43,008 nt of DNA from Candidatus Aminicenantota bacterium (GTDB lineage Bacteria; Acidobacteriota; Aminicenantia; S016-38): the NCBI GenBank assembly GCA_026991555.1, contig JALXBI010000098.1:1-43008 (forward strand). Direction: 5' to 3'. Below the pieces are notes generated by a model that worked only from the letters and a program-made list of their open reading frames with translations, made no database searches and was not told the DNA's origin. Within the stretch, counting starts at the first letter, position 1. Every line of letters starts with the position of its first letter. Below, piece by piece: positions 2,195 to 35,096 of the stretch. Both the position numbers and the translations under genes were made by a program.

Positions 2195-4235
2195 ATCCCA
2201 GGGTCCTGAGTTTTCTCAGCTCTTCTCTGGTAGGCTTGTAACCCGGTCCTTCTAAATAAAGCCTTTCCAGGGGGGTTATCAACCTCGTCAGGGTGATCCC
2301 TTCCCTCTTCGCACCATAAAGGTTGTTTCTTTCCCGGGGATCCTTTTGAAGGTCGTAAAGCTCAACCTTAGGAAGGGAAGGGGCTCTACGGAAGAATTTC
2401 CGCTCAATGGAAATGTTGTGTATGAGCTTGAAGTTATCCTTGATAATTCCAGTTTTGCGAGGGAAATAAAGGGGAGGGGAGGACTTAGGGGTGGCGAGGA
2501 ATACGAAATCCCTCTTGGGCTTCCAGGTTTGGGAAGCTTTTCCTCCGGTTATCTTGAGAACCAATTCCCAGAGGGAAATCAGGGAGATGGGTTTGTTGTC
2601 CCTCCCCTTCTTGAACTTTGAAGAATGGACAACTAAGGGAACATGGACCTCCTCGTCATAAAGGGAATATCCGTGTTCCCAGCTCCCGTGTTCGTAGAAC
2701 TGTTCCCCGTGGTCGGCAAAAATTATTATGTGAGCTCTCTTCCATAGGCCGTTTTTTCTTAAAAAATCAAGAAATGGGCCTAAAAATTCCCGGTCAATTA
2801 TGGATATTTCGTCCTCATACAATCTTTTGGCCAGTGCTGCTTCTGCTGGAGGAAGGGGAGAGAAAATGCCGGTAAGCCCACCCACCCTGGCCACTATGTC
2901 AAATCTTTTACCCTCTGCCAGATAAGGGCTGTGGGCCTGGTAGGTATGAAGAAATAAAAAAATCGGCCTATCGGACTTATCTTCGATAAAACTTACCGCC
3001 TGTTTGAGAAGCCTCTGGGAGGAATGGCGATCGAAAATATCATAGGGCCTCTGGGCATATAGGAGAAAACCCCTGGCAAATCCAAGATTCGCAGCTACCA
3101 GGCCTCCCCCGGTGAAGGCGGCGGTGTAAAACCCCTGGTTCTGAACCACCTCAGCCAATGCCCTGCGCGGGCTCTCCCAGGGATATTTTGAAAAAAGGGC
3201 TGCCATGTGCCCATCGTAAGTCCAGGGAACAGGGGTATAGGCCTTAGTAAAGAGCAGGGACTCCCTGACCAGGGCGTTTAAATTCGGGGTATTGGCCCCT
3301 CCTCCCCAGGGAGCTAAGCTGGCGGCCCTCACCGTATCCATGGAAAGGAGAACCACTATGGGAGCCCTGGAAGAGGGGGTATAGAAATAGGGATTGGTAA
3401 CGAAGGCGAGATTTCCAAACTCCCTCCCTTCGGCCCTTATCTCTATTCTTTTAGCCCAGGAAGGCAGGCGATAGTTTTTCAGGAGAACACCTTTCTTCTG
3501 GTGGTACTTGTCTATAACGGCCTTTTTTTCCCCACCTACAGCCACGATTTTAAAATCGAAGCCCGGGGCAGGAAATACCTGTCCTACAGGTGGAGGAAGG
3601 GGCATTACCATGGAATAGAACTCCACCCTCCTTTCTCCCTTAGTAAAGAAACTGACGAAGTTCTGGGGAAAAAGTGGAACCACCTGATAGACCCTGTTTA
3701 TACCCAGGTAGGAGACAGAGGAATATTCCTCTCTTATTTTTTCCCATTCTTCCTGAGTCAAAAGCTGAGCCAGGACAATATCCTTCCCGGGAAGTTTAAA
3801 TTTCCCTCTGAAGGGAAACAGGGTAAAACTATAAGTACCGGAGCTTTTTTTCCCCAACAAGTAAATACCTTCAAACAGGATGGCGTATTGACGGTCTCCT
3901 TCTCCTCCCTTCCCCTCGAAAATAATTTTTCTATCCGGCAGGAGAATTACCCTGCATCCAGAAGCAGGAAAATTGACCTCTTCTCCTGGCAACTGCCTTA
4001 TCCCCTGCCCTGGGGTCAGTATTATTTCCTCGCCGTTCTTTTTAACCGGACACCTTTGCAAACTTACGAAATATCCAGAAAAAGAGGGCACATGGCCGGA
4101 GATGCGTTTTACGGTTTTCCCCTGCCATTCCAGATAGGACCACTTAACCCGTTGTCTTCCCCAGATCCCCGGGGTTTCCCTTCCACAGCTCCAGAAAAAG
4201 AAGACCAGTATAACCCAAAAAACGGATTTCCTCAT
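2184..4235 (-). CDS. Sulfatase-like alkaline-phosphatase-superfamily lipoprotein
   Basis: 683 aa. The N-terminus MRKSVFWVILVFFFWSCGRE is a lipoprotein signal with the acylated Cys at residue 17, so the protein is probably periplasmic and membrane anchored. Residues of about 300-610 carry the sulfatase fold: LLSMDTVRA...TPNLNALVRES (metal site), HTYQAHSPY, and FADHGEQFYEHG (second metal site). It ends with a typical YDLQKDPRERNNL region and EELRKLRTLGYAK. The formylglycine signature C/SxPxR is absent; the equivalent segment reads YTPVPWTYDGHMAALF, so a Thr nucleophile and phospho- or phosphoethanolamine-type chemistry are possible. The first ~290 residues are of unknown function. It lies directly before lptB, consistent with an envelope role. 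Substrate unknown. Confidence 0.82.
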   Translation of the reverse strand: MRKSVFWVILVFFFWSCGRETPGIWGRQRVKWSYLEWQGKTVKRISGHVPSFSGYFVSLQRCPVKKNGEEIILTPGQGIRQLPGEEVNFPASGCRVILLPDRKIIFEGKGGEGDRQYAILFEGIYLLGKKSSGTYSFTLFPFRGKFKLPGKDIVLAQLLTQEEWEKIREEYSSVSYLGINRVYQVVPLFPQNFVSFFTKGERRVEFYSMVMPLPPPVGQVFPAPGFDFKIVAVGGEKKAVIDKYHQKKGVLLKNYRLPSWAKRIEIRAEGREFGNLAFVTNPYFYTPSSRAPIVVLLSMDTVRAASLAPWGGGANTPNLNALVRESLLFTKAYTPVPWTYDGHMAALFSKYPWESPRRALAEVVQNQGFYTAAFTGGGLVAANLGFARGFLLYAQRPYDIFDRHSSQRLLKQAVSFIEDKSDRPIFLFLHTYQAHSPYLAEGKRFDIVARVGGLTGIFSPLPPAEAALAKRLYEDEISIIDREFLGPFLDFLRKNGLWKRAHIIIFADHGEQFYEHGSWEHGYSLYDEEVHVPLVVHSSKFKKGRDNKPISLISLWELVLKITGGKASQTWKPKRDFVFLATPKSSPPLYFPRKTGIIKDNFKLIHNISIERKFFRRAPSLPKVELYDLQKDPRERNNLYGAKREGITLTRLITPLERLYLEGPGYKPTREELRKLRTLGYAK

Positions 4236-4256
4236 CCTGGAAATTTTAGCATTCCT

Positions 4257-5633
4257 TTATCCCTGCTCAAAAATCCTGTAAATGGGCGAAGGGTCAATTC
4301 CCTGTTCCCTGGCAAGGGTTAGAAGGAGGGAAGCGGCCCTTTCCACCTCTCCCCGCCTCAGATTCCCTACGAATTCCCCGGCAGAGATCCAGGGAATCAA
4401 GGTTCTTTCCGGATTCAAAAAGTGAAAGAGAACTTCGTCGGCAGGCCTCTCTAGCAATACCAGAGGATATTCAATTCCTGCTCTGCGGAGAATTTTCCGG
4501 TAAATTACCCTTTCCGGGCATAGTCTAAGGGCCCTTTTAAAGGCAGGGGTGTAGGGATAGGGAATAAGAAAAGGGGCATTGGGAAGGAGATGGAAATTTT
4601 TATATTTCAAAAGAAGTCTCCCCACGAAGGAAAACTCCTCTGCGAATTCCTCCAGCGTGGACTGACAATCGGTTAAAATCCAGTAGTGATAATTCTTTAT
4701 CCCCTCCTCCTCAAACCTTTCCACCGCCCTCAAGATATCCTCCTGCCGGCTCCTTTTGGCCAGCCTCTTTGCCCTGCGGTCCAAAAAAGCGTCGGTCCCA
4801 ATCCACAAAACTGGCCCTGCAACGAAGGGAGCTTCCCTCAAAGCTTCCATGGCCTTCAGGGAACGAAGGCTATCCATGGAGGTCTGGATTCCCCATATCC
4901 TTAGACCCTCTTCCTTTATTATCCTGAAAACCTCCCTGGCATAATCGGGTTCCAGAAGGATGTCATCGTCGGCTAAGTTGACCCTTTCCCCGCCCTTCTT
5001 CCTGAATTCCCTCATCCACTTCTTTACAGAGGAAAGGGGGGTCCTTCTCTGATGCCTTCCATGGGGGTGGGTGCAGAAAATGCACGAGCGGGGACATCCC
5101 CTGGTTAAGACGATCTCCAGTTCTTCCCCAGAAAGGGAAAGGTCCGGGAAAACATGGGAAAGTTCCTCCCTTATTGGAAGGGGCTGGGGAGGTTTTTCCT
5201 TTCCACTTAATCTAACGCCCCAGGGGCCCCGGGGTATTTTCCCGTCCCTCAGGGATGCCAAAACCTTCCCAAAGGCTTTGTCCCCTTCTCCTGGAAAAAC
5301 CACATTCGCCTTGGGAAAAAGGTAGAAAACCTCCACGGGAGCCATGGTGGGGGTTATTCCGCCAAGGAGGACCAAGGGGCCAGGCGGGATTCTCCTTACA
5401 AACTCCGCCTCCTGGAGGAAAAAATCGTCAAAAAGGGTTATCCCAATGGCAAAATAACTGCTAAGCTCCCTTGGAGGGGAAAGGGTAAGGGATTGAACCT
5501 CAAGGAAGGAAAAATCCACTTCAAATCCCTTTTCCTTAAGCCCGGCGGAAAGGAAAAGAACCGAGGGGGGGGCCACGATACCCTTCCACCTTTCCATACC
5601 CTCCTTAGGAAAGACTAAAAGAACCCTCTCCAT
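4257..5633 (-). CDS. B12-binding-type radical SAM protein
   Basis: 458 aa. Residues 1-150 look like the Rossmann cobalamin-binding domain found in this class (MERVLLVFPKEG, LLGGITPTMAPV, FPGEGDKAF), though the His-ligand motif DxHxxG is not evident. The radical SAM motif CPRSCIFC (Cys 180, 184, 187) follows in VLTRGCPRSCIFCTHP. The strand-loop GERVNLADDDILLEPDYA is typical of the barrel. Such proteins include methylases and lipid- or hopanoid-modifying enzymes; nothing in the sequence identifies the substrate. It sits between polX and the sulfatase-like gene on the same strand with gaps of 3 and 21 nt. Confidence 0.83.
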   Translation of the reverse strand: MERVLLVFPKEGMERWKGIVAPPSVLFLSAGLKEKGFEVDFSFLEVQSLTLSPPRELSSYFAIGITLFDDFFLQEAEFVRRIPPGPLVLLGGITPTMAPVEVFYLFPKANVVFPGEGDKAFGKVLASLRDGKIPRGPWGVRLSGKEKPPQPLPIREELSHVFPDLSLSGEELEIVLTRGCPRSCIFCTHPHGRHQRRTPLSSVKKWMREFRKKGGERVNLADDDILLEPDYAREVFRIIKEEGLRIWGIQTSMDSLRSLKAMEALREAPFVAGPVLWIGTDAFLDRRAKRLAKRSRQEDILRAVERFEEEGIKNYHYWILTDCQSTLEEFAEEFSFVGRLLLKYKNFHLLPNAPFLIPYPYTPAFKRALRLCPERVIYRKILRRAGIEYPLVLLERPADEVLFHFLNPERTLIPWISAGEFVGNLRRGEVERAASLLLTLAREQGIDPSPIYRIFEQG

Positions 5634-5636
5634 AAA

Positions 5637-7268
5637 CTAAGCCCCGGGTTTGAGGAAACCGATAAGCCTTTCAGCCTCCCAGGTATTTATTATCCTCTCC
5701 GGGGGAAGGGCAGCCTTCCTGGCCACCTTTATTCCGTATTTCCTTAGCCTTTCCAGGTTCACTGTGGAATGGGCATCGGTGTTTATGGCAAAGTAAACCC
5801 CGTAGCCAAGGGCCTTTTCTGCAAGATGATAGGGAAGGTCCAGCCTCTGGGGCTGGGAATTTATCTCTATGGCAACCCCCCTCTGGGCCGCCTTTTTGAA
5901 AATCTCATCCCAGTCGGCTTCAGCAGGAGGCCTTTTTCCCAGGAGCCTTCCTGTAGGATGGCCTAAAATTTTAACGTAGGGATTGTCTAAAGCACGAAGA
6001 AGCCTCCTTGTCATCTCCTCCTTTCCCATGTCCAGTTTCAGATGGGGGGAAGCCACCACATAGTCCAGCTTAGAAAGAACTAAATCCGGATAATCCAGCC
6101 TCCCATCCTCCAATATGTCCACCTCTGCAGAAGCAAAAACCCTTATGGGAAAATTCCCCTTTCTTATTATCTCCACCTGCTCTAAGAGACGTTCAGCAGG
6201 GAGGCCACCGGCAATCTTTGAGGAAACCGAATGGTCGCTTATTCCTAAGTAATGGTATCCCATCTGATAAGCTTTATTTATCATTTCCTCCAAGGTGCTT
6301 TTCCCATCGGTCCAATCGGTATGAACATGAAGGTCTCCTTTCAGGAGGTTTTCCTCCACTAAGGGAGGAATACTTTCCAGATTAAGGTGACGGATTTCAG
6401 GGGGGGGCCATTCCAGTCCTAAGGCGTGGTAAATTTCATCCTCAGAGGAATGCAGAACCCGGTTTTTAAGAAAAAGCCCATCCTCGTTTAACTTGAACCC
6501 CTTCTCCTTTGCCCTTTGCTTGAGCCAATCCCAGTGGGTGCGGGGACCGGTAAGTATTATTTTCCAGACCCCTCTCCTTGCCCTGTCAAAGAAATCCACA
6601 GGGATTCCCGAGGGAAAATAAAACCTGACCTTTCCCTCAAGCTCCTTCTTGGGCCAGGGGAACTTCAGGGGTTTTGCGAAGTAGAGAATGTCAAGGTCGT
6701 CAAAGATTTCGTCAAACCTCCTGAAACTTCCCACGGCTTCAGCCCCCTCGACGCTTTCCAGCACGAGGTCAAGGGCTTCCTCCGCCTCCTCTATGGTGAA
6801 TTTCCCCAAATAGATTTCCACCCTCTCCAAGGAGCGAAGAATTTTCTCTATTTTCTTGGGCCCGAACTTGGGAATTTCCTTGGCCCTTTCGCTTTTGAGG
6901 AAATTCTTAAGTTCCTCTACAGTCTTTATTCCGTAGGAGGTGTAAAGTAGCCCCACGGTCTTGGGACCCATTCCAGGAACCCTCAAAAGGGAAAGCAAGG
7001 AATAGGGCATTTCCGCAAGAAGTCTCCGGTGCAAATTACAATCCCCGGTCTGGATTATTTCCATTATTTTCTTTTCTATGGCCTCCCCTATGCCCTCTAT
7101 CTTCCTCAGGTCCCCTCCTTCCTTAACATAGTCCTCAAGCCTCTGGGGGAAAGCCCTGATAACCTCGGCCACCTTCCTGTAGGACCTTATTTTGAAGGGA
7201 TTTTCCCCCTTTATCTCAAGAAAATCAGCAATCTCGTCAAAAATACGGGCAATAACCCTGTTTTCCAT
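5637..7268 (-). CDS. polX: Family X DNA polymerase with C-terminal PHP exonuclease domain (PolX)
   Basis: 543 aa, close to the usual 570. An N-terminal 8-kDa-like helix-hairpin-helix region (IEGIGEAIEKKI, 57-68; RVPGMGPKTVGLLY, 96-109) precedes the polymerase palm with GSFRRFDEIFDDLDIL (180-195, metal-binding Asp191/Asp193) and VDFF (224-227) for the third Asp. The PHP domain begins LHVHTDWTDGKS (HxH at 314/316), then ISDHS (344-348) and a late NTDAHS. Bacterial PolX enzymes fill gaps and trim 3' ends in base-excision repair. The usual Gly after GSxRR is Phe here. The gene abuts nadB with no spacer; no functional link with nadB is apparent beyond shared transcription. Confidence 0.92.
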   Translation of the reverse strand: MENRVIARIFDEIADFLEIKGENPFKIRSYRKVAEVIRAFPQRLEDYVKEGGDLRKIEGIGEAIEKKIMEIIQTGDCNLHRRLLAEMPYSLLSLLRVPGMGPKTVGLLYTSYGIKTVEELKNFLKSERAKEIPKFGPKKIEKILRSLERVEIYLGKFTIEEAEEALDLVLESVEGAEAVGSFRRFDEIFDDLDILYFAKPLKFPWPKKELEGKVRFYFPSGIPVDFFDRARRGVWKIILTGPRTHWDWLKQRAKEKGFKLNEDGLFLKNRVLHSSEDEIYHALGLEWPPPEIRHLNLESIPPLVEENLLKGDLHVHTDWTDGKSTLEEMINKAYQMGYHYLGISDHSVSSKIAGGLPAERLLEQVEIIRKGNFPIRVFASAEVDILEDGRLDYPDLVLSKLDYVVASPHLKLDMGKEEMTRRLLRALDNPYVKILGHPTGRLLGKRPPAEADWDEIFKKAAQRGVAIEINSQPQRLDLPYHLAEKALGYGVYFAINTDAHSTVNLERLRKYGIKVARKAALPPERIINTWEAERLIGFLKPGA

Positions 7269-20800: not shown

Positions 20801-20960
20801 CGGAACCCTTCCCATGGCGATTTCAAAAAGCACGGGTTCGGAAATGAGGGCTCCCATGGGACTGGCCATTGTGGGTGGGCTCACCGTGGCTACCTTCCTT
20901 ACCCTTTTCGTGGTTCCCATAATTTACACCTACATGAACAGAATAAAGCCTAAGGCTTGA
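17862..20960 (+). CDS. RND-family efflux pump inner-membrane subunit (AcrB/HAE1 type)
   Basis: 1032 aa, the usual length for this trimeric proton-driven pump. Twelve membrane segments are visible, with TM1 following MSIPSFSVKRKVTITMLI. The TM4 motif LGVGMLVDNAVVVIENTYRH contains the conserved relay Asp in VDN (AcrB has two Asp), and TM10 reads AGIAVNNGIVMVDYINQL, with Asn where AcrB has its relay Lys. The first porter loop has the typical YQGASPEDVEQLVTKPLEE. These point to the hydrophobe/amphiphile (HAE1) branch rather than the heavy-metal CzcA branch. The last 11 bp overlap the convergent SdpI-like gene. Confidence 0.94.
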   Translation: MSIPSFSVKRKVTITMLILIIVVVGAIAYTKLGLDLMPSIEYPTLTIITSYQGASPEDVEQLVTKPLEEIVSSVTKVKDVKSVSQEGLSLITVEFEWGTNMDAAAQDIRDRISRFRYLIPDEADDPVVYKFNISDFPILYYGVSSKTLTQSQLKRVLDDQVVEKLSRLDGVAAVQVLSPRKREILITPSLEKLASYKIGVDRIIQALRMENVNQPAGYILTSHREEDIRVRGQFDSLEDIKKIVVGVSKDGKVVHLGDVAQVRFGDFQYRATTDINGEPAVVMLVTKTSSANTVVVARRVKKTLKQLRKNLPRDVDFHLVFDQEKPITLMAKRTVGNILAGGLLAIIVLFLFLGNWRPTLVISLSIPLSIISTFIAFYLAGYTLNLLTLGGLALGVGMLVDNAVVVIENTYRHFEEKGLSPDRASVVGTEEVAMAITASTLTTIAVFFPMVFASGITGKLSRALALSISFSLLSSLFVALTITPMLTSVLYREEKPGGLYKKLRAFSDSFVKGKMRRVYEGALRWTLHHRAGVLGVVFLLFVLSFGVIKVVGTEFMPKVDRAIVMMKIKTPVGTPLEVTDKIARRDAKILASFPETISVLTSVGVTQEGGIGSASFEFSPSGPHEAMLWAKLKYKEERKRSIDEILEDFRGRIPKYRGVENQVLDLGRMMTGGSLYPVEIEVYGKDLNSIYTVARRVAKVLKSVRGIRDVNMTYQAGKPETVLIPRRDVISRLGLSTAYIGTLINSATTGELATRISYKGDNYDVRVQIPRREREKLDELLKFPIITPLGTRVYLGDLVEVRKGTGPVRIYRSSKQRVITVRANIVGRSLGQTVAEAKRKLRPIEENLPMGYSVEVAGQYKDMIDAIKTMIQVFLLAALLTYMIMAAEFEHLSHPFVIMFTVPLALMGVLWALLIAGKPLSLPAMMGIVMLAGIAVNNGIVMVDYINQLIRAGKDRYEAVVEGAVTRLRPVLITALTTVFGTLPMAISKSTGSEMRAPMGLAIVGGLTVATFLTLFVVPIIYTYMNRIKPKA

Positions 20961-21570
20961 TTTCCCTTTTCCAGAGGAGATAGGAATAGATTATCAAAAA
21001 CACTATCAGGGCGGATAGGCCCACCAGGAAAACAGCAAGGGCCATCTTGGGGAAAAGGATGGCTAAGGGCAGGGTGATTATCCCCAGCAGGACAAAACCC
21101 CAGCCTCCCACCCGGTGGGTCCTCCGCCACACCCTCTCATCCTCTAAGGTCCAGGGAGTCCTTATCCCTACGAAGTAATTGGGCTTTATGCTCGGAAGGT
21201 AATTCCCCATTATCACAAGGAGCAGGGAAAGAAAAACCACAACGGCACTGGTTACCGGAAACCTGTGCAGGTAAAAATAGGGAAGAAAAGGGAAGAAGAT
21301 GGGTATCAAAAACATGGCGGAAAAAAGGAGGTGGTATCCCCTGGAGGTCCACAGGGATTTCCTCTTTGGGTCTATTCGGGGAACCAGGAAATAGACCAGG
21401 AGCAAAACCACCAGTATGCCCATTCCTGTAAAAAACAACTCACCTTTGCTCCCCCAGCGGTCAGGGTTTCCCGAAAGCTCAAAATGCAGGGGAACCCTTC
21501 GGGGCAGGCTGAAGAAAGCGTAAAGGTTGGCGAGGAGGCCTGCTCCGGCCAGGGCAAGATTAATCCTCAT
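20950..21570 (-). CDS. SdpI-like integral membrane protein (DUF1648)
   Basis: 206 aa. An N-terminal DUF1648 module (FFSLPRRVPLHFELSGNPDRWGSK, given in part) is followed by about five further membrane segments and the SdpI family phrase NYLPSIKPNYFVGIRTPWTL...VWRRTHRVGGW. In Bacillus, SdpI is the immunity protein against the SdpC toxin and works with the SdpR repressor. Here the ArsR-type regulator gene lies immediately upstream with an 11-nt overlap, so the SdpR-SdpI pair is kept, but no SdpC-like toxin gene is visible. It may serve as a general membrane-stress sensor or immunity protein. Confidence 0.87.
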   Translation of the reverse strand: MRINLALAGAGLLANLYAFFSLPRRVPLHFELSGNPDRWGSKGELFFTGMGILVVLLLVYFLVPRIDPKRKSLWTSRGYHLLFSAMFLIPIFFPFLPYFYLHRFPVTSAVVVFLSLLLVIMGNYLPSIKPNYFVGIRTPWTLEDERVWRRTHRVGGWGFVLLGIITLPLAILFPKMALAVFLVGLSALIVFLIIYSYLLWKREIKP

Positions 21571-21844
21571 TTTCCCCTCCCTTTTTCCTTAAAAATCTTG
21601 CAGCAAACTCAAGAATTTCCTGAAAAACGGTTTCCTCCAAGGAACAGATGACCTCCTTCCCCTGTTTTGTGCAGTTCACCACCCCGGCGTTCCTCATGAG
21701 GTTTAAGTGATGGGTAATGGTGGGACGGGAAAGGCCCAGTTCCTCTGCCAGCTGAGAAGGGGTCCAGTCCCTTTCCTTTAAAAGCTCAACTATCTTGAGC
21801 CTTACCGGGTCCGAAAAAACATTGAAGAGTTCCCTTACACCCAT
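21560..21844 (-). CDS. ArsR-family regulator, SdpR-like
   Basis: 94 aa from the ATG at 21844. The winged helix-turn-helix reads FNVFSDPVRLKIVELLKERD, then TPSQLAEELGLSRPTITHHL, and the wing GVVNCTKQGKEVICSLEE. It lacks the CxC metal site of ArsR/SmtB sensors, as in SdpR. A longer frame opens at 21937-21940, but a TATAAT box at 21869-21874 lies inside that extension and the extension is partly made of a RAYT-type repeat, so I take the shorter start even though it has no strong SD. Expected to repress its own gene and the sdpI-like gene. Confidence 0.85.
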   Translation of the reverse strand: MGVRELFNVFSDPVRLKIVELLKERDWTPSQLAEELGLSRPTITHHLNLMRNAGVVNCTKQGKEVICSLEETVFQEILEFAARFLRKKGGENED

Positions 21845-21868
21845 AACGATTTCACAATCTTCAAATTG

Positions 21869-21874
21869 ATTATA
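21869..21874 (-). promoter_or_regulatory. -10 element of the sdpR-sdpI-like operon
   Basis: A consensus TATAAT on the minus strand, 24 nt upstream of the chosen start codon at 21844. No good -35 is seen at 16-18 nt, so the promoter may need an activator. Confidence 0.5.
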
Positions 21875-21895
21875 ACACTTCGGGAAATACCCCTG

Positions 21896-21916
21896 AAAAA
21901 GGGTCTGTCCCTTTTT
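21896..21916. repeat. Isolated copy of the RAYT-associated repeat
   Basis: AAAAAGGG-TCTGT-CCCTTTTT, a perfect 8-bp inverted repeat with a 5-nt loop. Its core GGGTCTGTCCC is the reverse complement of the GGGACAGACCC that bounds the transposase unit at 33931-35129. It sits between the divergent promoters of the sdpR-like and cytochrome genes. Confidence 0.8.
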
Positions 21917-21923
21917 TGAGAAT

Positions 21924-21951
21924 TTGAAAATCTTCATCAAAGTCCTAATAT
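21924..21951 (+). promoter_or_regulatory. Promoter of the cytochrome operon
   Basis: -35 TTGAAA (21924-21929), 16-nt spacer, -10 TAATAT (21946-21951). Predicted start near 21958, just before the SD AGGAGG, giving a very short leader. Confidence 0.55.
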
Positions 21952-21967: not shown

Positions 21968-23302
21968 ATGAAGAAGGTCTTTGTTTTCTCGACTTTACTT
22001 CTGGCTTTCCTCTTTCTGGGTTTCAAAGCCGGAAAAAGCCAGAAAAAAGCCAAGTATAGTGATTTTGAAACCCCGCAGAGTTGCGGACAATGCCACAAGG
22101 AAATCTACACCGAATGGAAACAAACCATGATGGCCCAGGCATATACCCATCACTGGGATGAAATAGAATACTTCAAGCTGGCTGTTCCTCACTCGGAAAG
22201 GGATGAATTCTTCAAAGAGGCAGTAGAGGGGTGCAACGGATGCCACACTCCTATAGCTTACTTCGTGGGGGACAGGAACCCGAAGCCCCCTTCCTCTGGG
22301 ACCAGAGCCAACGAATCCGTATCCTGCGAGGTATGCCATACCATTTCCGGTTTCCAGGGAAAGGAACCCTTTAATTTCAACTACATTCTCAACCCGGGAA
22401 GGATCAAGTATGGACCCAGGGAAGGGGTAAAATCCCCTTACCACGACACCGTGAAAAGCGACTTCATCCAGAAACCGGAATTCTGTGCTACCTGCCACAA
22501 CGAGAAAAATCCATTTGGAACCTGGGTGAAAACCACCTATTTTGAGTGGAAAGAGGGCCCTTATTCCAAGGAAGGGGTAAGGTGTCAGGATTGTCATATG
22601 TGGAAAGGTCGGGGCATCCCTGCAGTCATGAGCAAGGAAGTTGCGGACATGAGGCACCACAGTTTTCCAGGCGGCCATGTTATGGCGAAAATAAGAGGGG
22701 CCATTGAGTTAAAGGTTTACTCGGATAGACCAGAATACGAGCCCGGAGATGAGGCAAAAATCACCGTTCTCCTTTACAACGCCAAGGCAGGCCATAAACT
22801 TCCTACGGGGTCAGTGGAGGACAGGCAGCTTTGGGTTGAGGTTCACGCTATTGATTCCTCAGGAAAAAGATACATACTTCCCGTGGACAGGAAGGGCTTC
22901 AAAGGGGAGGAATACACCATAACCTCCAACGAACTGGCTTATCAGGACTTAGGGGAAATGCTGGGGATAAAGGACTTCAAAGGCCTCCCCAGGGATGACC
23001 TTGAAGAAGGGCACAGGATTTACCGAATAGCCTTCCTGGACCCCAAGGGTAGAATGACCATAGCCCAATGGAATACCAAAACTCTTGGGGTGGACTACAG
23101 GATAGGCCCCAGGGAAACGAAGGTGGAAACCTATACCTGGAAAATTCCTGACGACATAGCCCCGGGAAAAGTAAGGATTGAGGTCAGGGTTCTTTACCGG
23201 TTGCTGGTGAGCTCTGTGGCCAAATTTTTAAAGGTCCCGGAGGACGAATATAAAACCAGGGAAATAAATTCGGCCACGGCAACCTTTGAAATCATCGAAT
23301 AA
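21968..23302 (+). CDS. Pentaheme c-type cytochrome with C-terminal beta domain
   Basis: 444 aa. Signal peptide at about 1-23 (MKKVFVFSTLLLAFLFLGFK). Five CxxCH heme sites at Cys 39, 89, 120, 173 and 206 lie in the first half, with spare His residues (61-62, 75, 158, 230, 236) available as distal ligands, as in cytochrome c554-like proteins. From about 245 a beta-sandwich-like region follows (DRPEYEPGDEAKITVLLYNA, GHKLPTGSVEDRQLWVEVHA). It is presumably periplasmic or surface exposed and transfers electrons. SD AGGAGGAAAA precedes the ATG. It is followed after 11 nt by a heme-bearing outer-membrane protein, suggesting that they act together. Confidence 0.9.
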   Translation: MKKVFVFSTLLLAFLFLGFKAGKSQKKAKYSDFETPQSCGQCHKEIYTEWKQTMMAQAYTHHWDEIEYFKLAVPHSERDEFFKEAVEGCNGCHTPIAYFVGDRNPKPPSSGTRANESVSCEVCHTISGFQGKEPFNFNYILNPGRIKYGPREGVKSPYHDTVKSDFIQKPEFCATCHNEKNPFGTWVKTTYFEWKEGPYSKEGVRCQDCHMWKGRGIPAVMSKEVADMRHHSFPGGHVMAKIRGAIELKVYSDRPEYEPGDEAKITVLLYNAKAGHKLPTGSVEDRQLWVEVHAIDSSGKRYILPVDRKGFKGEEYTITSNELAYQDLGEMLGIKDFKGLPRDDLEEGHRIYRIAFLDPKGRMTIAQWNTKTLGVDYRIGPRETKVETYTWKIPDDIAPGKVRIEVRVLYRLLVSSVAKFLKVPEDEYKTREINSATATFEIIE

Positions 23303-23313
23303 GGGGGTCGAAA

Positions 23314-24450
23314 ATGAAAAAGATAATCCTTTCCATTATTTTAAGTCTTTTTGCCAGTTATTACCTCGCGGCAATACCGGCCTTTGCCCGTAAATACGGG
23401 TTCTCGTGTTCGGTATGCCACGCTCCCTTTCCTCACCTTAAAGATTTCGGAGAAGAATTCGCAGCCAATGGATTTACCATAGAAAACGAACCCAAAAGGG
23501 CGGAGAAAAAGACCGGAGACACCATCCTGCACTTACAAAGAGAGCTTCCCATAGCTATAAGGATGGACCTTTTCATCACAGGAGAAAGCGGAGCCGAATC
23601 CAACCCCGACATAAAGGCTCCCTATGTGCTTAAGTTCTTATCCGGTGGAAACATATCCAAGAACATTTCCTACTATATGTACTTCCTTCTCACCGAGGAA
23701 GGAAAAATTGAGGGATTGGAGGATGCCTACCTATCCTTCAACAATATTATGGGCGCCCCCCTCAGCATAGTTCTCGGACAGTTCAGGGTTTCAGACCCCA
23801 TAAAGCCTTCCGAACTGAGACTCACCTTTGAAAATTACAGGATTTACAAGTTCACCGTGGGACTATCCAGAATCCGACTTTCCTACGAAAGGGGCGCAAT
23901 GCTCCTTTATAGCACAAAGTTCGGAACCGATTTAAGTTTTGAGGTGCTTAATGGAAACGGATTTCAGCACGGAGTATTTGATACTGATAAATACAAAACC
24001 TTTGCCGGAAGACTGGCCCAATCCTACAGGAACATAACCCTGGGAATTCTCGGATACTGGGGCAAGGAAGGCACAGAATATGTCAACGAGGTAACCTACA
24101 TTGGTCCTGACATTACCCTGAGATTGGGCAAATTTCAATTTTTCTTCGAATACCTGCGACGAAGGGACTCTAACCCTCTATTCACTCCAGAACCCGTATC
24201 AGTGACTACCGATGCTTACATGGGGGAGGTGATTTTCTCTCCCCAGGGGGAAAACGGAAGGTGGTTTATAACCCTGCTTTACAACAGGGTGAATTCCGAA
24301 TACGAACCTGCCGAATACAATACCCTTACATTCAACCTTAACTATCTTATCCGAAGAAACCTCAAGTTAATCCTGGAATATACAAGAGCCTTAGGAGATA
24401 CTGCCCTACCTGCCAATCGCTTTGTGGCGGGTTTTATAACAGCGTTCTAA
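23314..24450 (+). CDS. Outer-membrane beta-barrel protein with N-terminal c-type heme site
   Basis: 378 aa. Signal peptide at about 1-25 (ending AIPAFA), then RKYGFSCSVCHAPFPHLKDF with one CxxCH (Cys 32/35, His 36). From about residue 70 the sequence is alternating amphipathic strands rich in Tyr/Phe/Gly, ending NRFVAGFITAF with a C-terminal Phe, as required for BAM-mediated insertion. This resembles a monoheme porin-like protein. With the preceding pentaheme cytochrome it could move electrons across the outer membrane, though a single heme at the barrel entry is unlike the known multiheme-in-porin conduits. Substrate and partner unproven. Confidence 0.82.
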   Translation: MKKIILSIILSLFASYYLAAIPAFARKYGFSCSVCHAPFPHLKDFGEEFAANGFTIENEPKRAEKKTGDTILHLQRELPIAIRMDLFITGESGAESNPDIKAPYVLKFLSGGNISKNISYYMYFLLTEEGKIEGLEDAYLSFNNIMGAPLSIVLGQFRVSDPIKPSELRLTFENYRIYKFTVGLSRIRLSYERGAMLLYSTKFGTDLSFEVLNGNGFQHGVFDTDKYKTFAGRLAQSYRNITLGILGYWGKEGTEYVNEVTYIGPDITLRLGKFQFFFEYLRRRDSNPLFTPEPVSVTTDAYMGEVIFSPQGENGRWFITLLYNRVNSEYEPAEYNTLTFNLNYLIRRNLKLILEYTRALGDTALPANRFVAGFITAF

Positions 24451-24489
24451 TCTGAAGAGAAGATACAAACTTCGTGATAAAATTCTTGC

Positions 24490-25149
24490 ATGCAGGGGTT
24501 GCGTAGAGGTGCATTTTTAACTATGGTATGGGCCCTGCCCGCAGCCGAAGAAGGGGTAGAAAAGGCCCTGGAAGTCTGGAGTCTCATGAGCTTTTTCCAG
24601 CTCTCCCTCCTGCTCCTGCTCATAGGCCTTCTCCTACACTTTGCCGGAAGATATTACCAGAGAATACTTAACAGCTTCAGGATAAGGCTAAGCGGTGAAA
24701 ATTTCGGGATAATCTTCGTGCTGGTCAGGGACCTATCCCTATTCGCCGCCTTCGGTATAGGGGCCATGCTCATAAATCCGGACATATTCGGCGACATTAA
24801 ACTGGCCCTCCCCTTCGTCCCCTTGGGCACTGTATTTCTCGGCCTTGCCTTAGTGGTCAAGTTATCCAAGGACATTGAAAAGGACCGAAGGGCCAACAAA
24901 TTATTTTCCTATCTGTTGCTTACAGCTGCCTTTCTCCAGTATTTCGGGTTTGTCTTCGTCATGGAAGCGGCTCCTGAGGAATGGGTTTCCTCGGGAAAGG
25001 CCGGGGCCTTCTGGCTCTTTTTAAGGAGCCTCCGTTCCAATCTCAACCCATCCCTTTCCATGTGCACCTTTTACCTAACCTTTCCCCTAATAGTCCTTGT
25101 CTTTATACTCATTCTTTTGAAGGGAATCTCTCATTCCTCCCAGGGATAA
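24490..25149 (+). CDS. Membrane protein of unknown function in the cytochrome operon
   Basis: 219 aa with about five hydrophobic segments (near 35-52, 77-98, 105-123, 137-155, 195-212); no Cys-rich or heme motif and no family I recognise. The start is uncertain: the ATG at 24490 has TAAAAT exactly 6 nt upstream, which suits a leaderless transcript, whereas the ATG at 24523 has AGAGGTG about 12 nt upstream and would remove 11 residues. It is on the same strand 39 nt after the heme beta-barrel gene, so a membrane anchor or quinone-interacting role in the same electron path is possible. Its end overlaps the convergent ferredoxin gene by 19 bp. Confidence 0.7.
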   Translation: MQGLRRGAFLTMVWALPAAEEGVEKALEVWSLMSFFQLSLLLLLIGLLLHFAGRYYQRILNSFRIRLSGENFGIIFVLVRDLSLFAAFGIGAMLINPDIFGDIKLALPFVPLGTVFLGLALVVKLSKDIEKDRRANKLFSYLLLTAAFLQYFGFVFVMEAAPEEWVSSGKAGAFWLFLRSLRSNLNPSLSMCTFYLTFPLIVLVFILILLKGISHSSQG

Positions 25150-26564
25150 ACTCTGATGGCCTTGGGGGATTGGGGACATTTGTTCTCGCAAATACCACAT
25201 CCAATACAGAGGTCGTCCTTTACCACAGGGGCTTTTATCTTAAACCTCTTTCCGTCCGGGGTTATGGTATCCACATCAATCAGTTTTATGGCCTTAGAGG
25301 GAACCGGGCAGTGTTCCTCGCAAACTATACACTCCTTGCCGTAGGCAAAGGGAAGGCAGATGGAACGGTCCACCCTGGCAACGCCCATTTTCTTGGTCTT
25401 CGGGGTGAATTTACCTATGGCCCCGGTGGGGCACAAATACTGGCAGAGAAGGCAATCGTATTCGCAATAACTCAGCTCCGTGGCCAGCCTCGGGGTCCCG
25501 TAATTTTCAAATCCCCATAAAATCCCCATGGGCTGGAGAACGGAGGTGGGACATCCCTTCATGCATTCTCCGCATCTTATACAGCGGGAGGTAAAATCCT
25601 TCACCGCGCCAGGAGGCCTGAGAACCTTCCTCTCTGCCCTGACTAAGGGAAGGGTAAGGAGGGATGCGGCGGCCGCAAGAAGAACCTCCCTTCTTTTTAG
25701 ATTTACCGGGGCAGGTTTTTGTTGGAGGGAAAGGGAGGGACTGGTGTATATGGCATCCTCCGGGCATACGCTGTGGCAGCGAAAACACTGGTAACACTCG
25801 CCGGGTTTCCATCCGGTAAAGGGAGTGGCGGATGCAGGACATACAGCATCGCATATTCCGCATCGGGTGCAACGGTCCCAGTCTATTTTCAGCTTTAAGG
25901 TATTGCCCTTAGAAAAAAGGGAAAGCAGAGCGCCGTAGGGACAGATGTATTTGCACCAGAACCTCTCCTCCACAAGATTAAGGAGAAGGATGGCCAGAAG
26001 GAGGGAACCCCAGGTTAAAGCCCCGTAAAAACCGTGGGGTTCCACTAAGGTGTAGTTACCAAGAAAGGGGAGGAATTTGCTCATTTTCTCCAGAATGTAA
26101 TTTCCCGAGGGATGGACCGCCAGCGCCATGGCTTTAAACAGTATAGAAAGGGGGTCTAAAATTCCCCCGAAACCCAGCCCGTAAAGCCCCCCCACGAAAA
26201 TAACCAGAAGGAGAAGGTATTTATATTTCAGGGGAGGTTTTTTGTATCTTCTCTTTTTAACCCTGAAAACATAGGAAAAAAGGGCATTCAGGGTTCCCAA
26301 GGGACAGACCCACCCGCAGAAAAACCTTCCGAAAATAAGGGTAAGGGCCAGCATTGCCAGGAAGAAAAGGGAAAGGACCTGGAGGGTCCTTGAGGCTAAG
26401 GCAGAAAGGGAGATGGCGTAAAGGTCAGTCCTGAAGAAAAGGGAAAGCCAGGGGGAGACCCGGTCGGTGCCAAAAAAACCGGTTTTCAAAAAAAGATAGA
26501 CGAAGAGGCCCAGGAAGAATATCTGCGAGGCTCTTCTTAACCAGCGGAGAAGCCTATACTTCAT
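25131..26564 (-). CDS. NapH/NapG-like fusion: membrane polyferredoxin with internal Tat-like segment
   Basis: 477 aa. Residues 1-215 form a NapH/CcoG-type membrane domain with several TM segments and the two CxxxCP motifs FFCGWVCPLG (83-87) and WCKYICPYG. Ferredoxin motifs follow: CTRCGICDAVCP and CYQCFRCHSVCP. At 289-310 there is KRREVLLAAAASLLTLPLVR, which looks like a twin-arginine/TM segment, and then NapG-like clusters CIRCGECMKGCP, CEYDCLLCQYLCP, CIVCEEHCP and CIGCGICENKCP. That is NapH followed by NapG in one chain, with potential for about six [4Fe-4S] clusters. It likely moves electrons from quinol or cytoplasmic ferredoxin to the periplasmic side. Coupled to the DUF362 gene by a 4-nt overlap. 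Confidence 0.85.
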   Translation of the reverse strand: MKYRLLRWLRRASQIFFLGLFVYLFLKTGFFGTDRVSPWLSLFFRTDLYAISLSALASRTLQVLSLFFLAMLALTLIFGRFFCGWVCPLGTLNALFSYVFRVKKRRYKKPPLKYKYLLLLVIFVGGLYGLGFGGILDPLSILFKAMALAVHPSGNYILEKMSKFLPFLGNYTLVEPHGFYGALTWGSLLLAILLLNLVEERFWCKYICPYGALLSLFSKGNTLKLKIDWDRCTRCGICDAVCPASATPFTGWKPGECYQCFRCHSVCPEDAIYTSPSLSLQQKPAPVNLKRREVLLAAAASLLTLPLVRAERKVLRPPGAVKDFTSRCIRCGECMKGCPTSVLQPMGILWGFENYGTPRLATELSYCEYDCLLCQYLCPTGAIGKFTPKTKKMGVARVDRSICLPFAYGKECIVCEEHCPVPSKAIKLIDVDTITPDGKRFKIKAPVVKDDLCIGCGICENKCPQSPKAIRVYPWEE

Positions 26565-27403
26565 ATCCGAAGTATTTTAATGTCCTTCCTTCCCAATCCC
26601 CTTTCCTGACCTATTTTCACCCAGGGAGGTTCAGCAAGACCAAGGAGTTTAGCCCCCCAGTAATCGGCCCCCACAGGGTCGGAGGTTACCAGGACCCTTT
26701 TCTTAAGGGCAACATCCGCCAGATTTCCCCCCACCGGGCCGTGGGCTTTTAATACCCTATAGGCATCCACCACATAAAGGGTGGGCCTGAAAAACTGGGT
26801 AAGGTCCACTATGGCCGTGTGAATCTGTCTGTGGAGGTATCCCCTCCTTCCCCCTATCAACCCCATAAGGTTCTTCATGGAAATGGTTGCCCCGGCTAAG
26901 GAATGGTGTTTTACTATGGGAACATCTATTATCCTGTCCACTTCCAGGGCCTGTCTGTAAACCTCCCATTCCTTTAAGAATTCTCCCCCTATTTTCTTCT
27001 TTACCAGATCCCCTTCCCTGAGGAAAAGGACCTCTGCCCCTGCTCTTTTAGCAGCCCTGGCAATACCTGAGCGGTAATAGGTCCTTTTGGCGGGATTGCA
27101 GGGGTTGTCCAGAACGAGAACCTTTTTTGCCCCTGCCTCATAGGCTGCCTCCACCACAGCCCTTACCACCTCAGGATTGGTATCCGCTGCCTGCTCCGGC
27201 CTTCTATCCCATCCGATATTGGGCTTAACCAGAACCACATCCCCCCTGCAGGCCAGTTTTTTTATCCCGTAAGCTTTAAGGGCCCTTCTGGTTATCTCGT
27301 AGGGGTCATCCCCGTAAGCCTCCACCCCCTGGTAGTTTTCCCCGGAAACTAAGGGAAATACAAGGGAAGCCGCCAGAGCCTTTAAAAACTCCCTCCTTTT
27401 CAT
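26561..27403 (-). CDS. Tat-exported DUF362 protein
   Basis: 280 aa. MKRREFLKALAASLVFPLVS is a twin-arginine signal, so the protein is probably exported with a folded cofactor or partner. The DUF362 core is clear: VVLVKPNIGWDRRPEQAADT, NPEVVRAVVEAAYEAGAKKV, and KHHSLAGATISMKNLMGLIG. DUF362 proteins are often next to ferredoxin genes and their activity is unknown. Here the 4-nt overlap with the NapH/NapG-like gene supports a joint redox function. No Cys cluster is present apart from isolated Cys residues. Confidence 0.87.
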   Translation of the reverse strand: MKRREFLKALAASLVFPLVSGENYQGVEAYGDDPYEITRRALKAYGIKKLACRGDVVLVKPNIGWDRRPEQAADTNPEVVRAVVEAAYEAGAKKVLVLDNPCNPAKRTYYRSGIARAAKRAGAEVLFLREGDLVKKKIGGEFLKEWEVYRQALEVDRIIDVPIVKHHSLAGATISMKNLMGLIGGRRGYLHRQIHTAIVDLTQFFRPTLYVVDAYRVLKAHGPVGGNLADVALKKRVLVTSDPVGADYWGAKLLGLAEPPWVKIGQERGLGRKDIKILRI

Positions 27404-34325: not shown

Positions 34326-35096
34326 TTACCCTATGGCCTCATCTTCCCTTGTCTTTATCCTTCGTCTGAAGGGAAGAGCCTCAAGCCTTTTCCTTACGAA
34401 CGCCTCACTGCCATAGAAATATCCCCTCCCTCTGTAAAACCACAACTGCTGCGACAACTCGTGCTGGCGAACCTTCTCCTCAAAACTGCGAAGAAAATCT
34501 CGGTAATACCCACTCTCCAGACCCAGAGCTTCCTCAATACCCAAAAGCCAACCCCCGGCCCGGTGCCTCAGGCTGCTCCAGGGATAGTCTCCCAGCTTCT
34601 TCTCAAGGCCTGCCTTAAGAGGATTCAGTTCCACATAGGCGCTCACTACAGCAGCATGAACTCCCTCCTCAACCACAACACTGCGAAACCGGTCAAAATA
34701 AACCTTACCCCTGGTCTTTTCCTGGCGGTTATACCACTGGGCAAAACGCTGGTTGAGCTCCTTCATAAAACGGGAAATGTCCAGAAGGGCTTGCCTCCAG
34801 TAAGAGCCAGGGCGGGAAAAAACAACCCCGGCAGGGTAAAGCCGAAGAGCACGGCTTTGGGCCTCAGCCTCACTCAAAGAAGCAGGGCAGGGAACGTAAA
34901 CCAGAAGGTGAATGTGGTTGTCCATGATGGCGAAGGAGATAATCTTTATGGCAAAAACAGAAGCTAAGCGTTGTAGAAGGGAAAGTAGATACTCCTTGTG
35001 GTGAGGGCGCAGATAGGCAAGAGCAGGATGAAGATGAGCCATAAGATGGTAGTAGGCGGGACAGTGGCCTTTCTGGTAAAGGCGGGCTAATCTCAT
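34326..35096 (-). CDS. REP-associated tyrosine transposase (Y1_Tnp / IS200-like HUH)
   Basis: 256 aa. The HUH metal motif is in AIMDNHIHLLVYVP; the usual downstream helix with the nucleophilic Tyr is RFAQWYNRQEKTRG, followed by YFDRFRSVVVE, the typical RAYT replacement of IS200 TnpA sequence. AYVELNPLKAGL and YPWSSLRHRAGG are family hallmarks. RAYTs cut and join single-stranded REP-like sequences and are usually single-copy, domesticated genes. Only this gene lies between the flanking repeats. Upstream the sequence reads TATAAT, six bases, then ATG, with no SD, which suggests leaderless expression. Intact, with no frameshift. Confidence 0.9.
   Translation of the reverse strand: MRLARLYQKGHCPAYYHLMAHLHPALAYLRPHHKEYLLSLLQRLASVFAIKIISFAIMDNHIHLLVYVPCPASLSEAEAQSRALRLYPAGVVFSRPGSYWRQALLDISRFMKELNQRFAQWYNRQEKTRGKVYFDRFRSVVVEEGVHAAVVSAYVELNPLKAGLEKKLGDYPWSSLRHRAGGWLLGIEEALGLESGYYRDFLRSFEEKVRQHELSQQLWFYRGRGYFYGSEAFVRKRLEALPFRRRIKTREDEAIG

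What the first reader, a model, noticed from the sequence alone, without database searches (positions are those of the whole stretch)
21968..25149. Pentaheme cytochrome followed by a heme-headed beta-barrel: possible outer-membrane electron conduit
The first protein has five CxxCH sites, and the second is an outer-membrane barrel (terminal Phe) with a single CxxCH right after its signal peptide. A membrane protein follows. Known porin-cytochrome conduits use a separate multiheme cytochrome inside a heme-free barrel; a barrel with its own heme is unusual and could dock the pentaheme protein.
Basis: partly seen in the sequence, partly recalled or inferred. Interest (0 to 1): 0.55.

Follow-up and report, generated by a model that had tools for sequence, protein, structure and literature searches.

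The report
Cyc2-type heme barrel with pentaheme partner
Two neighbouring bacterial genes code for an outer-membrane barrel with one heme, of the known Cyc2 (iron-oxidising) type, and a five-heme protein encoded beside it in most related genomes examined, probably to pass electrons across the outer membrane; the barrel type is known and the pairing is a variant.

Summary
A 444-aa protein with five CXXCH (21968-23302) is followed 11 nt later by a 378-aa barrel with one CXXCH (23314-24450). The barrel is not a new design: it has the published Cyc2 signature (AIPAFARKY...CSVCH...PHL), 16 predicted strands and an OprO/OprP-like fold, so it is a fused cytochrome-porin. The pentaheme protein is related to pentaheme cytochrome c552 and, below NCBI's cut-off, to ExtKL. 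The two form a conserved module: in 72 of the 80 best named loci the barrel lies directly downstream (Aminicenantes, Ignavibacteria, Calditrichota, KSB1 and others), and 5 of the 8 exceptions end at a contig edge. No other neighbour is widely shared; the third gene is not part. The cytochrome also occurs without this barrel in 17 other genomes of the phylum. A 16-strand barrel should be too small to sheath the cytochrome, so docking at its periplasmic mouth is likelier (inferred). Direction is unproven. In 25 pair-bearing Aminicenantia genomes a heme-copper oxidase search found only NorB-like proteins and one other, which mildly favours outward flow there; Melioribacter roseus, however, has cytochrome oxidases. 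My searches found no paper on this pairing. New variant of a known kind.

The parts
21968..23302 (+). pentaheme c-type cytochrome, 444 aa; signal-like N-terminus without a lipobox Cys (by eye), heme region (about 30-240) and C-terminal beta region (about 246-444)
   Evidence: 5 CXXCH; Pfam Cytochrome_C7 and Cytochrome_C554 above cut-off; 5ze8 pentaheme c552 by sequence and first in Foldseek; five non-motif His conserved in at least 95% of 72 pairs
23314..24450 (+). Cyc2-type fused cytochrome-porin, 378 aa: N-terminal monoheme region (about aa 20-60) and 16-strand barrel (aa 81-376)
   Evidence: AIPAFARKY-GFS-CSVCH-APF-PHL; AF2 16 strands, mean pLDDT 72; OprO/OprP among the top of the VIA list; 74 of 74 collected barrels (picked by a looser form of the motif) have the relaxed motif and PXL
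23371..23439 (+). coding stretch of the Cyc2 signature AIPAFARKYGFSCSVCHAPFPHL (aa 20-42)
   Evidence: published motif in PMC8406198 section 12

Best explanation
The pair is a two-gene outer-membrane electron-transfer module. The barrel is a Cyc2-type fused cytochrome-porin: a 16-strand porin whose N-terminal heme c domain plugs the periplasmic mouth. A small dissolved redox partner (Fe2+/Fe3+ or chelates, or a similar solute) reaches that heme through the pore. The pentaheme cytochrome, secreted to the periplasm, docks at the periplasmic face and connects the plug heme to the periplasmic chain. In this host (an Aminicenantes; cytochrome bd and a NorB-type protein, no cytochrome c oxidase found by the PF00115 search) I think net flow is more likely outward, from quinol through periplasmic cytochromes to an external acceptor. 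Shown by computation: genes, motifs, predicted barrel, conserved linkage, co-divergence. Inferred: localisation, heme loading, docking, pore substrate, direction.
For: Cyc2 signature and PXL; 16 strands and OprO/OprP match, as published for Cyc2. Barrel directly downstream of the cytochrome in 72 of 80 named loci. In 347 phylum genomes all 23 with a close barrel (E <= 1e-80) have the close cytochrome. Distances of 72 cytochromes and their barrels correlate, r 0.83, 0 of 5000 permutations. No other neighbour is widely shared: the next family is in 11 of 81 loci. Five conserved extra His for five hemes suit an electron wire (inference). Of 25 pair-bearing Aminicenantia genomes, own included, 4 have a PF00115 match over cut-off; three are NorB-like (the own protein carries the NorB domain; the other two are 85-87% identical to it) and one, G037, is not.
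Against: No heme, localisation, complex or activity was measured. The AF2 model of the cytochrome is poor (pLDDT 53), the barrel's heme region has low confidence, and no complex was predicted. The cytochrome family occurs without a Cyc2-type barrel nearby in 17 other genomes of the phylum, so it has some barrel-independent role. Tested Cyc2 proteins are Fe(II) oxidases, the opposite direction. Melioribacter roseus, whose named MAG carries the pair (L140), has two heme-copper oxidases (PMC5492636 passages), so lack of oxidases is not a rule outside Aminicenantia. Shared ancestry alone raises the distance correlation. Three of 80 loci with some flank lack an adjacent barrel (L066, L093, L080).
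Confidence: 0.55

Rival explanations
1. Inward flow: the barrel is an Fe(II) oxidase like Cyc2 of Mariprofundus, and the pentaheme cytochrome takes the electrons into the periplasm for respiration or Fe(II) detoxification.
For: Three Cyc2 representatives have biochemical evidence for Fe(II) oxidation (PMC8406198 section 13). FeGenie lists Ca. Aminicenantes as having iron-oxidation potential through cyc2 or sulfocyanin homologues (PMC7005843 passages). Melioribacter roseus has heme-copper oxidases (PMC5492636 passages).
Against: The own genome (99.29% complete) shows no PF00115 protein other than a NorB-type one, plus cytochrome bd; 21 of 25 pair genomes have no PF00115 match over cut-off, some of them incomplete. 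FeGenie files cluster 3 Cyc2 under 'probable iron oxidation and possible iron reduction' and finds it in iron reducers; the cluster of this barrel is not known.
Confidence: 0.27
2. The pentaheme protein is an enzyme, for example an oxyanion reductase as suggested around ExtKL and ExtI, and the barrel is mainly its substrate channel with a relay heme.
For: Weak relationship to the ExtKL model (79.1 bits, cut-off 250) and to the selenoprotein cytochrome MccSep (E 3e-5); loss of ExtI lowers selenite and tellurite reduction (PMC5877670 abstract and passages); the cytochrome also occurs without the barrel.
Against: Five conserved non-motif His could give every heme two His ligands and leave no open site (inference without a structure).
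Confidence: 0.12
3. The genes are merely co-regulated: the barrel is a porin whose heme is structural, and the cytochrome works elsewhere in the periplasm.
For: Barrel-free cytochromes in 17 genomes.
Against: Linkage kept across many phyla while other neighbours change; the close barrel was never found without the cytochrome in 23 of 23 phylum genomes; 9 of the 15 invariant columns of the 29-sequence barrel alignment lie at aa 26-53, the heme region.
Confidence: 0.06

Closest known systems
Cyc2 family (fused monoheme cytochrome-porin; Acidithiobacillus, Mariprofundus, Leptospirillum Cyt572)
   Same: Signal-like start, single CXXCH, AXPXFAR[Q/K][T/Y] and PXL motifs, length over 365 aa, 16 strands, OprO/OprP-like barrel
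   Different: Upstream partner is a pentaheme cytochrome; published neighbours seen in passages are cyc1, cup, cox and rus in Acidithiobacillus (PMC10654088) and HiPIP with three periplasmic cytochromes in Bradyrhizobium (PMC5566968); cluster and Fe(II) activity untested
MtrAB / MtoAB / PioAB porin-cytochrome complexes
   Same: Outer-membrane barrel that works with a periplasmic multiheme cytochrome
   Different: There a 26-strand barrel takes in a decaheme cytochrome (PMC8406198 section 11); here 16 predicted strands with its own heme and a five-heme partner
ExtHIJKL of Geobacter
   Same: Outer-membrane protein plus a pentaheme cytochrome, ExtKL (PMC6148476 section 6), distantly related to this one
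   Different: ExtI has no heme motif (PMC5877670 passages); score to the ExtKL model is far below its cut-off; no rhodanese domain among the neighbours scanned with Pfam; selenocysteine was not looked for
Pentaheme cytochrome c552 of Thermochromatium tepidum (PDB 5ze8)
   Same: Best profile and Foldseek match of the cytochrome
   Different: 22% identity, TM-score about 0.3 and rmsd 11.4 over that Foldseek alignment, with a poor model; its gene neighbours were not examined

Membership tests
Cyc2 fused cytochrome-porin | single CXXCH with AXPXFAR[Q/K][T/Y] upstream and PXL downstream | tested here: met
   AIPAFARKYGFSCSVCHAPFPHL against the motif of PMC8406198 section 12. The motif ends 3 residues before the first Cys, whereas the paper says 5 upstream, counted in a way I could not check; P40 is 4 after H36 as printed. 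Over collected homologues the strict first motif holds in 49 of 74, the relaxed form and PXL in 74 of 74, but these were picked by a looser form of the motif
Cyc2 fused cytochrome-porin | length of at least 365 aa | tested here: met
   378 aa
Cyc2 fused cytochrome-porin | 16-strand porin domain similar to OprO/OprP | tested here: met
   16 strands in the AF2 model (pLDDT 72); OprO 4rjw Z 24.6, OprP 2o4v Z 24.5, rmsd 2.8, 291 aligned, tied within 1 with Omp32 and an OmpC; Foldseek ranks Omp32 first and OprO mutant 4rjx ninth
Cyc2 fused cytochrome-porin | placement in one of the three Cyc2 clusters by FeGenie HMM or tree | not testable with these tools
   HMMs and reference sequences not held
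Cyc2 fused cytochrome-porin | covalent heme, outer-membrane location, Fe(II) oxidation | not testable with these tools
   needs bench work
MtrAB-type porin-cytochrome complex | barrel of about 26 strands that takes in a multiheme cytochrome | tested here: not met
   16 predicted strands and an own CXXCH; 26 strands from PMC8406198 section 11
ExtKL multiheme cytochrome (NF040886) | score above NCBIfam cut-off | tested here: not met
   79.1 bits, cut-off 250
Cytochrome_C554 / Cytochrome_C7 (Pfam) | score above gathering cut-off | tested here: met
   36.5 over 20.8 and 35.7 over 24.8 bits

The most novel reading that the evidence does not exclude
A reductive branch of Cyc2: a fused cytochrome-porin driven by a dedicated pentaheme cytochrome, letting anaerobes without cytochrome c oxidase deliver electrons to dissolved external acceptors, so that Cyc2-type genes would not always mean iron oxidation.
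Probability: 0.3. Interest if true: 0.65.

Novelty: new variant of a known kind. Interest (0 to 1): 0.42.

Why it matters
Keffer et al. (PMC8406198, section 13) leave open what Cyc2 homologues do in organisms not known to oxidise iron. A clean two-gene module found in many phyla, including Aminicenantia genomes with no cytochrome c oxidase found, makes that testable. The pair also occurs in MAGs named Melioribacter (L113, L140), a genus said to reduce Fe(III) (PMC6137239 passage). If flow is outward, cyc2-like genes in metagenomes should not all be read as iron oxidation.

Tried and rejected
Rejected: that a heme-bearing barrel is undescribed (Cyc2 is in print). Rejected: MtrAB-like sheath (16 predicted strands). 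Rejected: third gene 24490-25149 as a component; relatives occur in 11 of 60 genomes (own included), 8 of them without the pair, and in G003 and G006 on another contig than the pair. Set aside: the divergent ArsR-type regulator as the pair's own regulator, because it sits with an SdpI-family gene (the SdpR/SdpI arrangement is recalled). Left open: the NapGH-like fused protein 25131-26564 as quinol feeder; convergent, below the NapG and NapH cut-offs, and not among the shared neighbour families printed.

Led nowhere: PHROGs (no match in 3 proteins); PDB sequence searches with the barrel (weak hits only, one to a redoxin-domain protein); plasmid tblastn (3 records, heme region only); promoter and terminator scan (at shuffle level); Foldseek with the poor cytochrome model beyond rank 1; NCBIfam gave no family for the NorB-type protein.

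Literature: ten searches in an open-access library without preprints; I found no description of a pentaheme cytochrome beside a Cyc2-type barrel. Most listed papers were seen only as listings. Seen further: PMC8406198 (sections 4 part 1, 11, 12, 13 and passages), PMC6148476 (outline, section 6), PMC5566968 (passages and section 18, on other multiheme cytochromes followed by an inner-membrane protein), passages of PMC11475568, PMC10654088, PMC5317091, PMC7399161, PMC6137239, PMC7005843, PMC5877670 and PMC5492636; PMC12442345 held none of my six terms. PMC5492636 has no 'multiheme', 'porin', 'barrel', 'outer membrane' or 'pentaheme'.

Limits: one search returned 80 of 389 relatives; 309 were not examined. 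Rows dropped: of 60 relatives, 4 of 30 barrel genomes and 2 of 28 cytochrome genomes with only distant matches; of 347 phylum genomes, 15 of 55 cytochrome genomes (kept: E <= 2e-50) and 64 of 87 barrel genomes (kept: E <= 1e-80), many of these matching only the heme region. The 72 full pairs include the window and L080 (barrel 3.1 kb away) and leave out L094 and L101, whose barrels are cut by contig ends. Oxidases were checked in the 60 relatives only, by PF00115 alone; cytochrome bd only in the own genome.
Full report
What is there. The first, 21968-23302, codes for 444 aa with CXXCH at 39, 89, 120, 173 and 206. The second, 23314-24450, begins 11 nt after the first ends, codes for 378 aa, has one CXXCH at 32 and ends in Phe. 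The third, 24490-25149, is a 219-aa protein that looks membrane-bound. None of 20,000 residue shuffles of the first protein gave five CXXCH, and 2 of 20,000 shuffles of the second gave one.

What the barrel is. No Pfam, NCBIfam or PHROGs family matched it at the limits used. Its N-terminus reads AIPAFARKYGFSCSVCHAPFPHL. Keffer et al. 2021 (PMC8406198; sections 4 part 1, 11, 12 and 13 read) describe Cyc2-like proteins by AXPXFAR[Q/K][T/Y] before the CXXCH, PXL after it, at least 365 aa and a 16-strand OprO/OprP-like porin, and state that the first motif is unique to Cyc2. AlphaFold2 on 29 aligned sequences gave 16 strands between aa 81 and 376, mean pLDDT 72. VIA-align put OprO first (Z 24.6, rmsd 2.8, 291 aligned) and OprP at 24.5, tied with Omp32 and within 1 of an OmpC; Foldseek alone ranked Omp32 first. 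The heme region has low confidence; the prediction holds no heme. So the heme-headed barrel is a Cyc2-type fused cytochrome-porin; its cluster could not be tested.

What the cytochrome is. Pfam Cytochrome_C554 and Cytochrome_C7 are above cut-off. The ExtKL model matches at 2.4e-22 but with 79.1 bits against a cut-off of 250. Among solved structures a single-sequence search finds pentaheme c552, 5ze8 (1.2e-7), and the selenoprotein cytochrome MccSep (3e-5 and 5e-5); a profile search up to 0.01 finds only 5ze8 (2.8e-9). 5ze8 is also first in Foldseek, although the model is poor (pLDDT 53) outside the C-terminal beta region. Beside the motif His, five His (61, 159, 231, 237, 276) are conserved in at least 95% of 72 paired sequences, enough for two His per heme; that is an inference. 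In 49 of 81 cytochromes one motif is CX3CH instead of CXXCH, at heme 1 in the alignment.

Linkage. In the 60 nearest genomes (own included) 26 have the close cytochrome and 26 a close barrel, 25 both; the two exceptions, G046 and G044, lie at contig ends. A scan of named genomes found 389 relatives of the cytochrome, of which the best 80 were returned. In 72 of 80 the Cyc2-type barrel is directly downstream on the same strand, within about 330 nt, two of them cut by the contig end. Of the other eight, five end within 200 nt of the gene, L080 has the barrel 3.1 kb away behind another gene, and L066 and L093 show none in 1.9 and 1.3 kb by frames and motif. Record titles of paired loci name Aminicenantes and other Acidobacteriota, Ignavibacteria including Melioribacter, Calditrichota, KSB1, Chlorobiota, Bacteroidetes, Kapaibacterium, Kryptoniota, Krumholzibacteriia, Deltaproteobacteria and one Clostridiales MAG. 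No other gene family is widely shared near the pair: the next one occurs in 11 of 81 loci. Cytochrome and barrel distances correlate (r 0.83, 0 of 5000 permutations reach it), which shared ancestry also produces.

Limits of the linkage. Over 347 genomes of the phylum all 23 with a close barrel have the cytochrome, but 17 genomes have a close cytochrome without a close barrel. I fetched those 17 with flanks, plus one paired genome as a positive control: tblastn finds the barrel in the control and in none of the 17, two of which are cut at the contig end. Three of the 17 (G062, G274, G337) have a distant barrel match on another contig. One, L141, has a heme-free Porin_5 protein directly upstream; its sister L142 does not. 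On a quick tree of 101 cytochromes, rooted at the midpoint, the paired label needs 3 changes against 17.5 in shuffles; 11 of 19 barrel-free rows fall outside the 90-row group that holds the paired ones, and 8 inside it, seven of them in one subgroup beside a paired row. The cytochrome therefore has some barrel-independent use, whereas the close barrel was not found without it apart from the contig-end fragment in G044.

How it may work. A 16-strand barrel should not hold a five-heme protein; MtrB, which holds the decaheme MtrA, has 26 strands (PMC8406198). Published modelling puts the Cyc2 heme as a plug at the periplasmic mouth, with dissolved iron entering the pore. I propose that the pentaheme protein docks on that mouth and connects the plug heme to periplasmic carriers. 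On direction: the own genome's only PF00115 protein carries a NorB domain, it has cytochrome bd, and its only other dense CXXCH cluster is an octaheme frame next to a cytochrome b561-type gene. Of 25 pair-bearing genomes in the set, own included, 4 have a PF00115 match over cut-off; three are NorB-like and one (G037) is not. The classic Cyc2 chain to a cytochrome c oxidase is thus not found in 24 of these 25, some of them incomplete. This favours outward flow in Aminicenantia. Against a general rule, Melioribacter roseus has two heme-copper oxidases (PMC5492636 passages), and other phyla were not surveyed. A quinone or nitrogen-oxide sink for inward electrons is not excluded either.

Known or new. 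Cyc2-type barrels are known, and FeGenie already lists Ca. Aminicenantes among candidates with cyc2 or sulfocyanin homologues (PMC7005843 passages). It files cluster 3 Cyc2 under probable iron oxidation and possible iron reduction, and finds it in iron reducers. I found no description of the pentaheme pairing in the searches listed under Tried and rejected. I therefore call it a new variant of a known kind with moderate interest.

Noticed in passing
cytochromes of L061-L140 and window 22082-22096: Heme 1 of the pentaheme cytochrome is CXXCH in 32 of 81 sequences (window included) and CX3CH (for example CGTSCH) in 49 of 81, a switch within one family.
   Followed up: partly
25131-26564 and 26561-27403, - strand: Convergent neighbour is a fused NapH-NapG-like Fe-S membrane protein (below both cut-offs) followed by a DUF362 protein with a Tat-like start; could be a quinol dehydrogenase.
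   Followed up: partly
L160 (own genome contig C79) 1916-4870, - strand: The only other dense CXXCH cluster of the genome: a frame with eight CXXCH, weakly like the octaheme tetrathionate reductase family, next to a cytochrome b561-type gene.
   Followed up: partly
L141, about 3112-5817, - strand: A cytochrome of the family without a Cyc2-type barrel lies directly downstream of a heme-free Porin_5 protein; not repeated in the sister genome L142.
   Followed up: partly
L027, L028, L029: More distant fused cytochrome-porins have other frames with two or four CXXCH beside them, so pairing with different cytochromes may be general.
   Followed up: no
20950-21940, - strand: SdpI-family membrane protein and ArsR-type regulator, divergent from the cytochrome gene.
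   Followed up: partly
34326-35096, - strand: IS200-like (Y1) transposase gene about 10 kb from the pair.
   Followed up: no
genomes G001 and G002 (same genus), G004 and G005 (same family): The pair is patchy: not found in these near relatives but present in G003 and G006, suggesting loss or transfer.
   Followed up: no
L119: A MAG labelled Clostridiales carries the pair and groups with two Aminicenantes sequences in the tree; probably mislabelled or misbinned.
   Followed up: no
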